Source of the DNA: Owenia fusiformis
Taxonomy: Eukaryota > Annelida > Polychaeta > Sabellida > Oweniidae
Assembly: GCA_903813345.2 (NCBI GenBank)
Contig: CAIIXF020000004.1
Span: 31,189,986 to 31,253,985 of the forward strand
Length of the DNA stretch: 64,000 nt
Direction of reading: 5' to 3'
Part shown: positions 6,180 through 64,000 of the stretch, piece by piece
Numbering within the stretch: position 1 is the stretch's first letter
Layout of the letters: every line of letters begins with the position of its first letter
Translations under genes and position numbers: made by a program
Notes under the pieces: generated by a model
Seen by the model: the letters and a program-made list of their open reading frames with translations, nothing else
What the model was told of the DNA's origin: nothing
Databases searched by the model: none

Positions 6180-9100
6180 GACTCTGCTGTGTGTCGTCCA
6201 CAGGATGATCGAGTTTGTCGTTCGAGAGGGTCCAATGTTTGAGGCAATGATAATGAACAGAGAGATCAACAACCCTATGTACAGGTAATGTATGGACATA
6301 GTATGTATTTTATTGTATGTATGTATTGTATGTAAGTCTAGTGAGAGATAAACAACCCTATATTTTTTATTGTATGTATGTATTTCATTGTATGTATGTA
6401 TTGTTTGTAAGTCTAGTGAGAGATCAACAACCCTATGTACAGGTAATGTATGGACATTGTATGTATTTTATTGTATGTATGTATTTCATTTATGTATTGT
6501 ATGTAAGTCTAGTGAGAGATTAGCAACGCTATATACAGGTAATCTATGGACATTGTATGTATTTTATTGTATGTATGTATTTCATTGTATGTATTGTATG
6601 TAAGTCTAGTGAGAGATCAACAATCCTATGTACAGGTAATGTATTTTATTGTATGTATGTATGTATTTCATTGTATGTATGTGTTGTATGTAAGTCTACT
6701 GAGAGATCAACAACCTTATGTACAGGTAATATACGAACATTGTATGTATTTTATTGTATGTATGTATTTCATTGTATGTGTGTATTGTATGTAAGTCTAG
6801 TGAGAGATAACAACCTAGTACATAATCTATGTATGGACATTGTATGTAAGTCTAGTAGACTATATTCTATAGTTCTGAGATTTTGGGAAAATTGGCTGAA
6901 AATATCAGACTAATAGGACTAAGCCTTCTATGTGAATCTATGTGAAGATTTTGTATTCAAACAAACATCTGTTTACATGGGAATTGTTTAAAATGGCCAA
7001 TGTAGTAAATTAATTTGCATATTTGTTACTTTCCCTGGCTGTATTTCTCATTGAAAATATATTATAAAGGCCTAGATTAACTAGTAAGCTTGGCCTATAC
7101 AAGTATTAAGATTGGTCTATGCAACAAGTTAGCTATGCCTATACAGCATGTTAACCTGGCCTATATTACAAGTTAAGAAGGCCTATACAACATGATATCA
7201 GCCTACACAATGAGTACAATGTACAACATCTAAGCTAGGTCTTTGCAACTTATTAACTTGGCCTAACCAACAAGTTAGCTTGGCCAATACAACATGTAAG
7301 CTAGGCCTAAACAACAAGTTAACTAGTCCTATACAACATGTTAGCTAGGCCAATACAACATGTTAGCTAGCCCTATACAACATGTTAGCTAGGCCAATAC
7401 AACTTGTTAGCTAGGCTTATACAACATGTTAGCTAGGCCGATACAACATGTTAGCTTGGCCTATACAACATGTAAGCTAGGCCTAAACAACAAGTTAGCT
7501 AGGCCTATACAACATGATATCAAGGCCTATACAACATGTCAGCTTGGCCTATACAACTATTTAGCTTGGCCTGTGTAACAAGTTAGCTAAGCCTATACAA
7601 CGTGTAAGCTAGGCCTATACAACAAGTTAAGAAGGCCTATACATATGTTAGCTAGGCCAGTACAACATGTAAGCTAGGCTTAAACAACAAGTTAACTAGA
7701 CCTAAACAACATGATATCTAGGCCTCTACAACATGTTAGCTTGGCCTATACAACTATTTAGCTTGGCCTGTGTAACAAGTTAGCTAAGCCTATACAACGT
7801 GTAAGCTAGGCCTATACAACAAGTTAAGAAGGCCTATACACATGTTAGCTAGGTCAGTACAACATGTAAGCTAGGCTTAAACAACAAGTTAACTAGACCT
7901 AAACAACATGATATCTAGGCCTATACAACATGTTAGCTTGGCCTATACAACTATTTAGCTTGGCCTGTGTAACAAGTTAGCTAAGCCTATACAACGTGTA
8001 AGCTAGGCCTATACAACAAGTTAAGAAGGCCTATACACATGTTAGCTAGGCCAGTACAACATGTAAGCTAGGCTTAAACAACAAGTTAACTAGACCTAAA
8101 CAACATGATATCTAGGCCTATACAACATGTTAGCTAGGCCTATACAACATGTTAGCTAGGCCTATACAAAGTGAGAAGGTATTATTTTATAGGTTTCTAT
8201 TTGAGAACCAGAGTCCAGCTCATGTCTACTACAGGTGGAAACTCTTCTCCATTTTACAAGTAAGTCTTGCTAAATTACACTTATCAATTAGTCATTTTCT
8301 CTATGTAGAAGTAATTGAATTATTCTGTAAGTTTATATTATTAATCATTCTACAAGTTTCTAAAGATAATTATTCTACAAGTTTCTTAAGATAATTATTC
8401 TACAAGTTTCTAAAGATAATTATTCTACAAGTTTCTTAAGATAATCATTCTACAAGTTTCTAAAGATAATCATTCTACAAGTTTCTAAAGATAATTATTC
8501 TACAAGTTTCTAAAGATAATCATTCTACAAGTTTCTAAAGATAATCATTCTACAAGTTTCTAAAGATAATCATTCTACAAGTTTCTTAAGATAATCATTC
8601 TACAAGTTTCTAAAAATAATCATTCTACAAGTTTTTAAAGATAATCATTCTACAAGTTTCTAAAGATAATTATTCTGCAAGTTTCTAACATTATTAATCT
8701 TTTTCATTGTCCCAGGGAGACACACCCACAAAGTGGACAACCGATGACTTCTACATGTTCAAAGGGGGCAGCAAGTGGCGCCCTCCAGCGATGAACCCTT
8801 ACACTAGTGGTATGGATGAGCGACTCGTTAGAGATCGGGAGCAAACTGACGCTGGACCCAAGAAAGGACAATTAACAGACTCGTAAGTTTATACCTTAAA
8901 TTATGACTGTAAAATATACCTTAAATTATGACTGTAAAATATACCTTAAATTATGCCTGTAAAATATACCTTGAATTATGACTGTAAAATATACCTTAAA
9001 TTATGACTAAAATATACCTTAAATTATGACTAAAAAATACTTTAAATTATGACTGAAAATATACCTTAAATTATGACTGTAAAATATACCTTAAATTATG

Positions 9101-12100
9101 ACTGTAAAATATACCTTAAATTATGACTGTAAAAAATACTTTAAATTATGACTGAAAATATACCTTAAATTATGACTGTAAAATATACCTTAAATTATGA
9201 CTGTAAAATATACCTAAATTATGACTGTAAAAAATGGATTTTATACACCCTAGAAGTATTGTTCACCTAAATCAGATAAATGAGATAACTTTGGTAACTG
9301 ATTAACACCTGGTCACTAGAAAACCCTTGGTTACTGAGAAACCCCCGATCACCAGACATCCCGTGGTCATCAGGGAGCCCCCTGTGACCCCCCTGGTAAT
9401 ACCCATTTTTAACTTCCAGACAAAGAGACAGACTGGAAGACATGCTGCGTGATATGACCCCAGAGAGAGTCAAAGTTGGAGATGCTATGGTATGGTGCCT
9501 CGATCATGCAGAGGCTGCAGAAGAAATAGTCGAGTGTGTTCAAGAGTCTTTGTCTATTTTGGAGACTCCATTGCCTAAAAAGGTTAGAATTGCATACAGA
9601 ACGATTTGTATTCAGGATAGATTGCACCTATAACAATTAAAAGAGATAATCTGTTTTTAGAGCCATTTCTTGAAGTAAATAAAACTATTTCTGGAACTAT
9701 TTTAAGCAAAAGTTATGTCATGAAATATGATTGAAGATGACAAATTAATTTAAGCAAAAGCTACATCATGAAAGATAATTGAAAATTACAATTATTTTTT
9801 GAGCCAAAGTTACATCATGAAAGATGATTGAAAATTACAATTATTTTTGAGCCAAAGTTACATCATGAAAGATGATCGAAGGTGACAAATTGTGATTTAA
9901 AAAGTTTCGCAGAAGTTTTGCAGTTTCTTGAAAATGTATTGCTGGTAAAGTGTAAAAAAGTAAACTCTTTGATTTTAGATTGCCAGACTGTTCCTGATCT
10001 CTGATATTCTCTACAATAGCAGTGCTAAGGTGCCAAATGCCTCTTTCTTCAGAAAATAGTAAGTTTTGAATTCAATAGGATTTTTGACGAGAAATTGCAT
10101 ATCATTCTTTTAGTTGAGTAAATGGGAAAAGAATTACGCTCATTGTCATAGGGTTTGAATCTACCATTAGAAAGTGGAAAGTGTATAATATAATATACCA
10201 TTAGAAAGGAATGCCTTATTATTTAATATTTTTAATAATTAATTAGTGCCTTCATGGACAAGGGGCAATTTTGTTCAAATTTTGTAATGGGTATTCAGAT
10301 TGGAATCTGTTTTTTTTGCTCAGCTATTTCTATATTTCCATTTTGACACATACTGTATATTTTCACATTTTTGGAATTTTTACGAGACTTGATTGTTGTG
10401 TTCCAGTTTTGAGAACAAGTTAGCAGAAGTATTCAGAGACCTACACATGTATTATAATAACATTGAAGGAAGACTAAAGGCAGAACAGTTTAAAGTAAGT
10501 ATACAATCACTTCATTTCATTTCAGTAAAGCATAGTTACTCCACATGCCACTGGAATTGGCCCAAAGTGTTTTCACATTGAGAGGTGTTGGGATTAGAGA
10601 GGCATTCTGTTATACAGGTTTTAATCAGTTCATTTCATCATATGTGGATATCAAAGGGTAGTTTTTGTGACTTATAAAAGAAAGCATTATAAGAAAAGAA
10701 TATATTCTAAATGTTGTACTGTATCTTTTTGTCACACTTCAAGTGATATATTGTCATATTTTGTCACACTTCAAAGTGCTATATTGTCATATTTTGTCAC
10801 ACTTCAAAGTGATGTGTGGATGCCACAAGATACTTAGCATTAAGACAGCAGGAAAACTGATCATCCATTAGACTTTTCTAGATGCAAAAGCAGATTAGTG
10901 CCGAGATCTGATTAGGTTTTGATCATGCTCATCATTTTGTTAGGCGTTACATCTATAGCTGCATGTCTTGTAAATTTTAATGCTTTATTTTTCAGCAAAA
11001 GGTGCAGAGCTGTTTCCGAGCTTGGGAGGACTGGACAGTTTACCCGAATGACTTCCTAATAAGGCTACAAAACCTCTTCCTCGGTCTAACCACCATCAAG
11101 GTATTAAATCATCTAGCCCACTGAAAGAAAAACAAAAACCTTTAAATCTAATTTAGTAAATAGAGCAAGCCACAAGACTTTTTAACAGAATGAATTAATA
11201 TGAACTAAAGATAAATCTTAGAAAATTTGGTTCTGCTGTTAAATGAAATGCAAAAGAGAAAATGGAAAGTCCAGAATAGAAACCTAAATCATTATTGAAA
11301 TAACATTAAATAGTACTATACTTGTAAAAAATAACCTTAAATAGTACTATACTTGTATAAAATATAAATTAAGAACAATATTAAGCAATTAATGACATTT
11401 TGTATATACTTCAGGATGAGAGTTCTCCAGAACCTGATCGAGACTTTGACGTCATCCAGCCTCTTTCTGAAGATATAGATGGCACTCCGGCAGATTTAGA
11501 TGGCATCCCACTAGGTGGCCTCAACAAAAGTTTAGTCGGAGATTACGAAGATGTAGATTTAGATGGAATGCCAAGTGAGTTAATAGTTACTTTTCTTTTC
11601 CAATCGATTAGGTGATTTTTAATTATCAAGTACATGTCTGCTCTGTTAACTTTTTACTTTATTCAATTCATTTCACTCCATAAATAGTATAAATTGCCTG
11701 TTTTTTCTTGCATTTCTATACAATTTAGAGTGTTTACTACATGCCTAATTTGTTTATTCCTTGCTAATTCCATTTATTTCTCTCTAAAATTTGATTGAAG
11801 TGTCTGCTTATTTCCAGTGGAAAATAAGGAGGATCTCGATGGTCAGCCATTGGAGGATCAAAACCCCGCCCCCACTCCTGCTGTCATGAAATTCAAACCC
11901 TCGAAGTGGGAAACAGTCGATGAGGATGACCTTGAACGTCAAGCTGTCACGACATCAAAGTGGGAAATGTTTGATGCCCCAGAAGAAAAAACGAAGGAAG
12001 AGGACGTCGATGGAGAGTGAGTTTTTCTTGAACATATATCAAATTCAGTGATCTCCTAAGCGTTGAAAGAATACTGCATTCACTTAGGGATTTGAAAATT

Positions 12101-63505: not shown

Positions 63506-64000
63506 CTATTAAAGCAGAATTACAAATAAACTTCACATATTCTATAACATCTTCAGTCAGGCCTAACTCTCTTTTCAATGTATCTCTGTTCCAGTCAAGA
63601 TATCTCTAAAAGTAGAATTACAAATAAACTTCACATTTTCAATAACATCTTCAGTCAGGCCTAACTCTCTTTTCAATGTGTCCCTGTTCCAGTCAAGATA
63701 TCTCTAAAAGTAGAATTACAAATAAACTTCACATGTTCTATAACATCTTCAGTCAGGCCTAACTCTCTTTTCAATGTATCTCTGTTCCAGTCCAGATATC
63801 TCTAAAAGTAGAATTACAAATAAACTTCACATGTTCTATAACATCTTCTGTCAGGCCTAACTCTCTTTTCAATGTATCTCTGTTCCAGTCCAAATATCTC
63901 TAAAAGTAGAATTACAAATAAACTTCACATGTTCTATAACATCTTCAGTCAGGCCTAACTCTCTTTTCAATGTGTCCCTGTTCCAGTCTAAATATCTCTA
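63506..64000. repeat. 98-bp array of acceptor plus exon start (PADI), runs off the window
   Basis: Five copies with a strict 98-bp period (markers at 63545, 63643, 63741, 63839, 63937). On the minus strand each reads 'attctacttttag|AGATAT', then 'CTTGACTGGAACAGAGATAC' and 'ATTGAAAAGAGAGTTAGGCC', which is the acceptor plus about 65 bases ([19 protein letters not shown]) of the exon at 63505, then 'catgtgaagtttatttgtaa'. Copies are over 95% alike by eye. 98 is not a multiple of 3, so reading through several units breaks the frame. Confidence 0.92.

What the first reader, a model, noticed from the sequence alone, without database searches (positions are those of the whole stretch)
6180..64000. 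Splice-junction minisatellites: tandem arrays built from exon-intron boundaries in all four conserved genes
Of about 36 introns visible, around a dozen junctions lie in or beside an array or duplication whose unit spans the boundary, so copies carry a decoy donor or acceptor plus ~5-65 exon bases. Strong cases: U2SURP donors 6284 and 13349 and acceptors 12365 and 14251; MCM7 acceptors 39457, 51541 and 52625; DCUN1D acceptor 26546; PADI acceptor 63505. Weaker: U2SURP donor 8259, MCM7 donor 40673, DCUN1D donor 28880. Intron growth through AGGT-containing tandem duplication is an established idea for intron gain. A genome-wide habit of repeatedly amplifying existing junctions, on both donor and acceptor sides, is not something I know as a described system. 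It could supply redundant or competing splice sites, or mark a duplication mechanism targeted to junctions.
Basis: partly seen in the sequence, partly recalled or inferred. Interest (0 to 1): 0.85.

Follow-up and report, generated by a model that had tools for sequence, protein, structure and literature searches.

The report
Splice-junction minisatellites ("mirages") in an annelid
Several genes here carry tandem repeats that copy the edge of an exon together with its splice site many times into the intron; this was already known in amphioxus, and here it seems to be a by-product of repeat-rich introns rather than a targeted system, although in two genes the intronic copies oddly keep the protein sequence.

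Summary
I resolved 32 introns of U2SURP, MCM7, DCUN1D and PADI. Of 65 junctions, 10 have a significant junction-crossing copy in their own intron. Such arrays also occur in CCT, kinesin and myosin genes elsewhere in the genome.

The phenomenon is not new: amphioxus papers call it "mirages". The genome looks annelid, probably Owenia fusiformis (inferred).

Targeting of junctions is not supported. In the window, intron-internal sequence is repeated more often (25 of 62) than junctions (9 of 64). In 133 introns, 10 junction-spanning TRF arrays were seen against 6.3-14.1 expected from random placement, depending on how far arrays may enter exons. Most likely this is ordinary minisatellite growth, tolerated because only the exon-proximal copy must stay intact. 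In nine arrays 125 of 129 scanned copies keep GT or AG; 119 of 120 decoys lead to a premature stop.

Unexpected: in the two largest acceptor arrays with long exon parts (PADI, 66 decoys over 6.5 kb; a kinesin, 17 decoys) intronic exon copies vary mainly synonymously (14 synonymous, 6 nonsynonymous; about 76% nonsynonymous expected). Seven other arrays do not show this. It is a post hoc result.

The parts
6204..16630 (+). U2SURP-like gene, 3' part (13 introns resolved; intron 12510-13257 is GC-AG)
   Evidence: spliced frame open; CID and cwf21 domains; first acceptor and last donor read by eye
6260..6848 (+). donor mirage at true donor 6284: 5 copies incl. true in the scan, about 25 exon nt per unit
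   Evidence: TRF 6365-6848; junction oligo 49/50 identical, z 28.9; 5 of 5 GT intact
8883..9232 (+). 25-bp array abutting donor 8882; intron side only
   Evidence: TRF 8890-9232; significant but 0 exon nt aligned
12245..12400 (+). two-copy acceptor duplication at acceptor 12365 (copy acceptor 12279)
   Evidence: 46/55 identity, 30 exon nt; both AG intact
12672..13257 (+). 31-bp array abutting acceptor 13258; intron side only
   Evidence: TRF 12672-13250; 0 exon nt aligned
13333..13910 (+). donor mirage at true donor 13349, 56-bp unit, 10.3 copies, 17 exon nt per unit
   Evidence: TRF 97%; 42/42; 9 of 11 GT intact
13947..14267 (+). acceptor mirage at true acceptor 14251, 37-bp unit, 8.7 copies, 17 exon nt
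   Evidence: TRF; 39/42; 7 of 8 AG intact
36522..56704 (+). MCM7 gene (exons recognised in the window; 13 introns resolved)
39252..39472 (+). acceptor mirage at MCM7 acceptor 39457 (49/82-bp units), at least 16 exon nt
   Evidence: TRF; 36/41; 4 of 4 AG intact
40673..41019 (+). donor array at MCM7 donor 40673, 29-bp unit, 12 copies, GTAAGT-like decoys, almost no exon sequence
   Evidence: TRF; 10 of 11 GT intact
   Evidence: 23/25; sequence
51389..51554 (+). acceptor mirage at MCM7 acceptor 51541, 54-bp unit, 3 copies, 14 exon nt
   Evidence: TRF; 33/39; 3 of 3 AG intact
52320..52650 (+). diverged two-copy acceptor duplication at MCM7 acceptor 52625
   Evidence: 38/48, 22 exon nt
23736..29770 (-). 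DCUN1D1/2-like gene, 5 introns resolved; outer ends approximate
   Evidence: Cullin_binding domain; junctions; end frames
28726..28888 (-). 38-bp array at DCUN1D donor 28880, about 8 exon nt
   Evidence: TRF; 27/33
26557..26780 (-). array near DCUN1D acceptor 26546; junction overlap NOT significant
   Evidence: TRF; absent from the p<=0.05 list
62446..64000 (-). PADI gene, 3' exons (true acceptor 63505; last intron 63381-62682)
   Evidence: PAD domain 6.1e-53; junctions
63450..64000 (-). start of the PADI acceptor mirage: units spaced 98, 100 or 101 bp; the whole array (exon starts C4:31253490-31260038) has 67 acceptor copies, 66 of them decoys, at least 54 exon nt each
   Evidence: TRF; 67 of 67 AG intact

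Best explanation
These are mirages: ordinary minisatellites that happen to start across an exon-intron boundary in a genome whose introns are rich in minisatellites. A tandem duplication covering a junction pushes a copy of the splice site plus exon edge into the intron; slippage or unequal exchange then multiplies it. This is tolerated because the exon-proximal copy keeps the whole exon and the correct junction. The others are decoys that carry only one of the two sites an exon needs (decoy donors lie 3' of the true donor, decoy acceptors 5' of the true acceptor), so exon definition by the splicing machinery should pass over them. Shown: structure, copy numbers, intact decoy signals, stop codons after decoy use, no robust junction enrichment in this sample. 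Inferred: the mutational mechanism, correct splicing and exon definition. For the two largest acceptor arrays with long exon parts I further infer repeated exchange between the true exon edge and its intronic copies, so that the copies carry the exon's coding constraint.
For: Junction-crossing copies at 10 of 65 window junctions against 0 of 64 exon-interior controls. Same in other genes: 12 of 294 exon-match edges have a copy in the flank, mid-exon 4 of 294 (P=0.07), flank-internal 35 of 588; 10 of these 12 have a TRF array overlapping or within 40 nt, e.g. CCT genes with 83 bp x 9.1 and 53 bp x 20.2. Array coverage in the window is 12-15% in the first 10 intron nt and 31-49% at 61-100 nt; in the sample the rise is slight (3-4% to 4-6%). 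Placement null, 133 introns and 72 TRF arrays: 10 observed; 6.3, 10.3, 13.2, 14.1 expected when an array may reach 30, 60, 100, 130 nt into the exon. In nine arrays 125 of 129 scanned copies keep GT or AG and 119 of 120 decoys give an in-frame stop. Amphioxus mirages have the same architecture, and RT-PCR there suggests normal splicing.
Against: TRF borders count only 4 of the window's junctions as spanned, fewer than the 9 found by alignment, so the observed figure of the placement test is low. The sample is small and mostly of compact genes. Exon edge against mid-exon outside the window is only P=0.07. The synonymous bias in two arrays is not expected of purely neutral intronic repeats. No RNA evidence was available.
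Confidence: 0.78

Rival explanations
1. A duplication process targeted to splice junctions (for example by breaks linked to splicing or R-loops) repeatedly amplifies them.
For: Both ends of one intron are independently amplified (U2SURP 13349 and 14251).
Against: Intron interiors are repeated more often in the window. Coverage falls towards junctions, clearly in the window, slightly in the sample.
Confidence: 0.1
2. The decoy sites have a function in splicing: back-up sites, or decoys that hold introns unspliced, as proposed for decoy exons in human genes (recalled; one search gave a search listing only).
For: Decoys keep GT or AG in most copies, and in U2SURP 6284, U2SURP 13349 and the kinesin most decoys score like or above the true site on my generic matrix.
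Against: 119 of 120 decoys lead to a premature stop. In MCM7 40673, MCM7 39457 and U2SURP 14251 decoys score below the true site. High repeat identity can explain intact signals without selection. No conservation data.
Confidence: 0.07
3. The synonymous bias in the PADI and kinesin arrays comes from sequence exchange with the true exon (concerted evolution), not from use of the copies.
For: PADI: 66 decoys, 8 synonymous and 4 nonsynonymous codon variants, P=0.0024; variants in more than one copy 6 and 1, P=0.0012. Kinesin 6 and 2, P=0.0035. Together 14 and 6, P=2e-5. Adjacent intron varies to a degree comparable with synonymous sites. The true copies share rare variants with one or two decoys. 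All 83 decoys of the two arrays run into stops.
Against: Post hoc: 2 of 9 arrays with variants. The other seven show no bias (13 to 33, P=0.26), including one with 63 exon nt (1 to 3). One multi-copy nonsynonymous variant in PADI (E to G, 14 copies). Repeated snapshots of an evolving exon would look the same.
Confidence: 0.45
4. Assembly artefact: collapsed or expanded repeats at junctions.
For: Repeat lengths in draft assemblies are often wrong; only one assembly was available.
Against: Copies differ from each other by point variants and unit lengths (98/100/101 bp); arrays occur on several contigs.
Confidence: 0.03

Closest known systems
Mirages of amphioxus (Adh3, globins BflGb6 and BflGb9, PGBD5, TnC)
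   Same: Tandem arrays whose unit spans an exon-intron boundary, on donor or acceptor side; units 10-160 bp; many copies carry AG/GT signals (passages).
   Different: Here probably an annelid; 54 fetched stretches sampled besides the window; up to 67 copies; a coding-constraint signature in two arrays (not reported in the passages I saw, nor known to be absent there). Polymorphism and RNA could not be tested here.
Intron gain by tandem genomic duplication (AGGT model)
   Same: Tandem duplication creating extra splice signals (PMC3443670, passages).
   Different: That model makes a new intron inside an exon; here existing introns are longer by arrays. I did not test for new introns.
Exon-4 duplications of an earthworm metallothionein gene
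   Same: An annelid gene with exon copies that, by the paper's discussion, are absent from the transcript (PMC12783039, passages).
   Different: Whether they span junctions in tandem is not said in the passages seen; the paper's minisatellites lie inside intron 1.
Mutually exclusive exon arrays (muscle myosin heavy chain, GSK3-like kinase; names recalled)
   Same: Tandem exon copies within one gene.
   Different: The kinase pair are whole, diverged exons with acceptor and donor, the myosin copies are irregularly spaced; mirage units hold one site and part of an exon.

Membership tests
mirage (splice-junction minisatellite) | tandem array whose unit includes exon edge plus intron edge | tested here: met
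mirage (splice-junction minisatellite) | found at both 5' and 3' splice sites | tested here: met
   donors 6284, 13349; acceptors 14251, 51541, 63505
mirage (splice-junction minisatellite) | unit about 10-160 bp | tested here: met
   28-159 bp
mirage (splice-junction minisatellite) | regular splicing not disturbed | not testable with these tools
   no RNA; the true sites give an open frame
mirage (splice-junction minisatellite) | length instability between haplotypes, somatic instability | not testable with these tools
   one assembly only
mirage (splice-junction minisatellite) | outermost copy less homogenised than inner copies | tested here: inconclusive
   true-decoy identity slightly below decoy-decoy in the four arrays measured, e.g. 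0.970 vs 0.982; much lower in the PADI intron part, 0.42 vs 1.0, where a 2-nt indel shifts the comparison
mirage (splice-junction minisatellite) | reported in cephalochordates | tested here: not met
   Eryth_link_C, an annelid domain by recall, 3 matches over cut-off; contigs C1-C12 are 31.9-62.2 Mb against 12 chromosome-scale scaffolds and 505.8 Mb for Owenia fusiformis; GFP family, expected in amphioxus (recalled), gave no match, in a search without positive control. Taxon is not part of the definition.
targeted junction-duplication system | arrays at junctions more often than random placement | tested here: inconclusive

The most novel reading that the evidence does not exclude
Intronic copies of an exon edge evolve as if they were coding: frequent two-way exchange with the real exon puts them under its purifying selection (or makes them a reservoir that feeds synonymous variants back), so a 67-acceptor array can persist for a long time with its protein sequence largely intact although use of any of its decoys runs into a stop codon.
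Probability: 0.3. Interest if true: 0.75.

Novelty: new member of a known kind. Interest (0 to 1): 0.5.

Why it matters
It extends amphioxus mirages to what is most likely an annelid, and shows that they are not rare there (copies at 12 of 294 exon-match edges sampled outside the window). It gives numbers, the first known to me, on whether junctions are targeted. Arrays such as PADI (67 similar acceptors, one of which fits the frame) are natural tests of how the spliceosome chooses among near-equal sites. The synonymous bias is a testable case of selection reaching non-coding copies through sequence exchange.

Tried and rejected
Amphioxus as the source: suggested by PADI and mirages; no GFP-family match, in a search without positive control, while the erythrocruorin linker domain matched. 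COX1 gave nothing. A search for the assembly size in papers gave no fitting genome. The earthworm metallothionein paper: the passages shown place its minisatellites inside intron 1 and mention exon-4 duplications absent from transcripts; not followed further. The kinase pair at C10:2256896/2257074 looked like another mirage and proved to be two complete, diverged exons. General coding constraint on all decoys: rejected, seven of nine arrays show none. PADI decoys as in-frame cassette exons ending at a GTGAAG donor: 40 of 67 copies hold that hexamer, so it is not kept in all, but such use is not excluded. No Rfam match in the window.

Corrected errors: one search used a wrong donor for DCUN1D intron a (fixed; its window totals are superseded); the copy scan missed copies and was replaced; one search found only the true PADI copy, repaired. 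Splice scores come from hand-made generic animal frequencies (recalled), not trained on this genome.

Rows used and dropped: profile rows entered were MCM 19 of 28 (four are the window's own), CCT 51 of 60, kinesin 71 of 144, myosin 51 of 92; the rest were left out as intronless, scattered, too far apart or array copies. Exon pairs dropped: 34 of 120, 2 of 18. The kinesin C2 intron was set aside from all enrichment counts because it was chosen for its array; one search also left out that locus, matches under about 80 nt and the two C3 matches of an unjoined pair. Edges are profile-match edges, and some run into the intron. L067 was fetched and not used. Loci from then on were chosen for closely spaced exons, which favours short introns. 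The 30-mer test gave exon edges 6 of 64, exon interior 0 of 64, intron 50 of 128 in the window, and 5 of 170, 2 of 170, 13 of 328 in the sample. The myosin extension (0 synonymous to 3 nonsynonymous read from the printed copies) is not in the pooled 27:36; with it 27:39, P=0.0012. Five of the 13 arrays entered had no variants there.

Papers: PMC3087553, PMC3902484, PMC12783039, PMC8826395, PMC9977687 and PMC3443670 were seen as passages only, others as listings; the 2002 Adh paper (PMC117041) is not held and is known from its citation and recall. That I found no junction-spanning array reported outside amphioxus rests on the listings.

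
Full report
Source. The window lies on contig C4 of a 498-Mb genome with 525 contigs. Contigs C1-C12, the ones above 31 Mb whose lengths I saw, add up to about 477 Mb. The genome holds three matches above cut-off to the erythrocruorin linker domain, which I know as an annelid domain. 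Owenia fusiformis has 505.8 Mb and 12 chromosome-scale scaffolds (PMC9977687, passages). Owenia or a close relative is therefore my inference; no name was available.

Gene models. Thirty-two introns were fixed in U2SURP (13), MCM7 (13), DCUN1D (5) and PADI (1), with open spliced frames where several exons were joined. MCM7 aligns over residues 3-554 with a solved MCM7. All four have supporting Pfam domains. One U2SURP intron is GC-AG.

Are the arrays there? TRF gives 122 rows in the window, and arrays of period 7 or more cover 25.6% of it. Junction 55-mers were compared with their own introns: 13 of 64 junctions are repeated at p<=0.005, 9 of them across the junction with 5 or more exon nt; PADI 63505 adds a tenth of 65. 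Exon-interior controls: 0 of 64. Thirty-nt pure exon edges: 6 of 64 against 0 of 64 interior.

More than this window? Exons of CCT, MCM, kinesin and myosin genes were located by profile search and fetched. Of 294 profile-match edges outside the window, 12 have a copy in the neighbouring flank; mid-exon oligos 4 of 294; flank-internal oligos 35 of 588. Ten of these 12 have a TRF array overlapping or within 40 nt; at C6:29007820 it is only adjacent, and one of the two without TRF, C6:17270946, shows exon copies in its sequence. A kinesin exon edge repeated 17.9 times at 159 bp was noticed first and excluded from the statistics.

Targeted? Not on this evidence. In the window intron-internal 55-mers are repeated in 25 of 62 cases; junctions in 13 of 64, 9 of them crossing (P=0.02 and 0.0012). 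Array coverage rises with distance from the junction, clearly in the window and slightly in the sample. Placing the 72 TRF arrays of 133 introns at random, allowing 30, 60, 100 or 130 nt into the exon, gives 6.3, 10.3, 13.2, 14.1 junction-spanning arrays; 10 were observed. TRF borders see only 4 of the window's junctions as spanned, against 9 by alignment, which lowers the observed count.

What the decoys would do. In nine arrays 125 of 129 copies found by the scans keep GT or AG. On a generic matrix most decoys equal or exceed the true site in U2SURP 6284, U2SURP 13349 and the kinesin, and fall below it in MCM7 40673, MCM7 39457 and U2SURP 14251. Using a decoy gives an in-frame stop in 119 of 120 cases; the exception has lost its GT. 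In U2SURP intron 11 (13350-14250) all decoy donors found lie 5' of all decoy acceptors, so they cannot pair into a pseudo-exon. That the splicing machinery therefore picks the exon-proximal copy is inference from exon definition.

Known before. [quoted passage not shown] PMC3902484 adds PGBD5 and TnC. I file the present arrays as mirages.

Unexpected. The PADI array continues past the window: 67 acceptor copies with exon starts from C4:31253490 to 31260038, spaced 98, 100 or 101 bp, all with AG; 51 of 67 encode [18 protein letters not shown]. Codon variants among 66 decoys: 8 synonymous, 4 nonsynonymous (a stop and two other singletons, and one E to G in 14 copies), where 75.5% nonsynonymous is expected (P=0.0024). 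In the exon-proximal 30 decoys piS is 0.176, piN 0.006 and adjacent intron 0.091, the last inflated by a 2-nt indel. The kinesin array gives 6 and 2 (P=0.0035), piS 0.072, piN 0.0036, intron 0.083. The other seven arrays with variants give 13 and 33 including myosin (P=0.26); the two groups differ by Fisher P=0.0025. Because the contrast was found after looking, I treat it as a lead. Exchange with the true exon is my preferred reading; repeated snapshots of an evolving exon is close behind; use of the copies as exons seems unlikely because all 83 decoys of these two arrays run into stops.

Noticed in passing
window 27256-28257 (+): Intronless 334-aa open frame inside a DCUN1D intron on the opposite strand, matching only the C-terminal part of the protein kinase domain (Pkinase 1.3e-15); perhaps a pseudokinase or retrogene.
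   Followed up: partly
window 37441-38283, 41604-42306, 53210-53877: Three arrays with 162-bp units in MCM7 introns whose consensus units look alike by eye (one reversed): perhaps a dispersed satellite-like element.
   Followed up: no
window 59427-59784 (+): C2H2 zinc-finger open frame with an 85-bp tandem period, slightly off the 84-bp finger length.
   Followed up: no
C9:37977014-37994334 (-), whole genome: Myosin gene with 12 irregularly spaced matches to one N-terminal exon, probably mutually exclusive exons.
   Followed up: no
L070 about 990-1310: Kinase gene (GSK3-like by eye) with two diverged neighbouring exons, each with acceptor and donor: probably mutually exclusive exons.
   Followed up: yes
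window 12510-13257 (+): U2SURP intron 10 is GC-AG (GAG|GCAAGT).
   Followed up: partly
window 62446-64000 (-) and L071: A PADI gene in a probable annelid; a 2021 survey listed none in 2 annelid proteomes (PMC8826395, passages).
   Followed up: no
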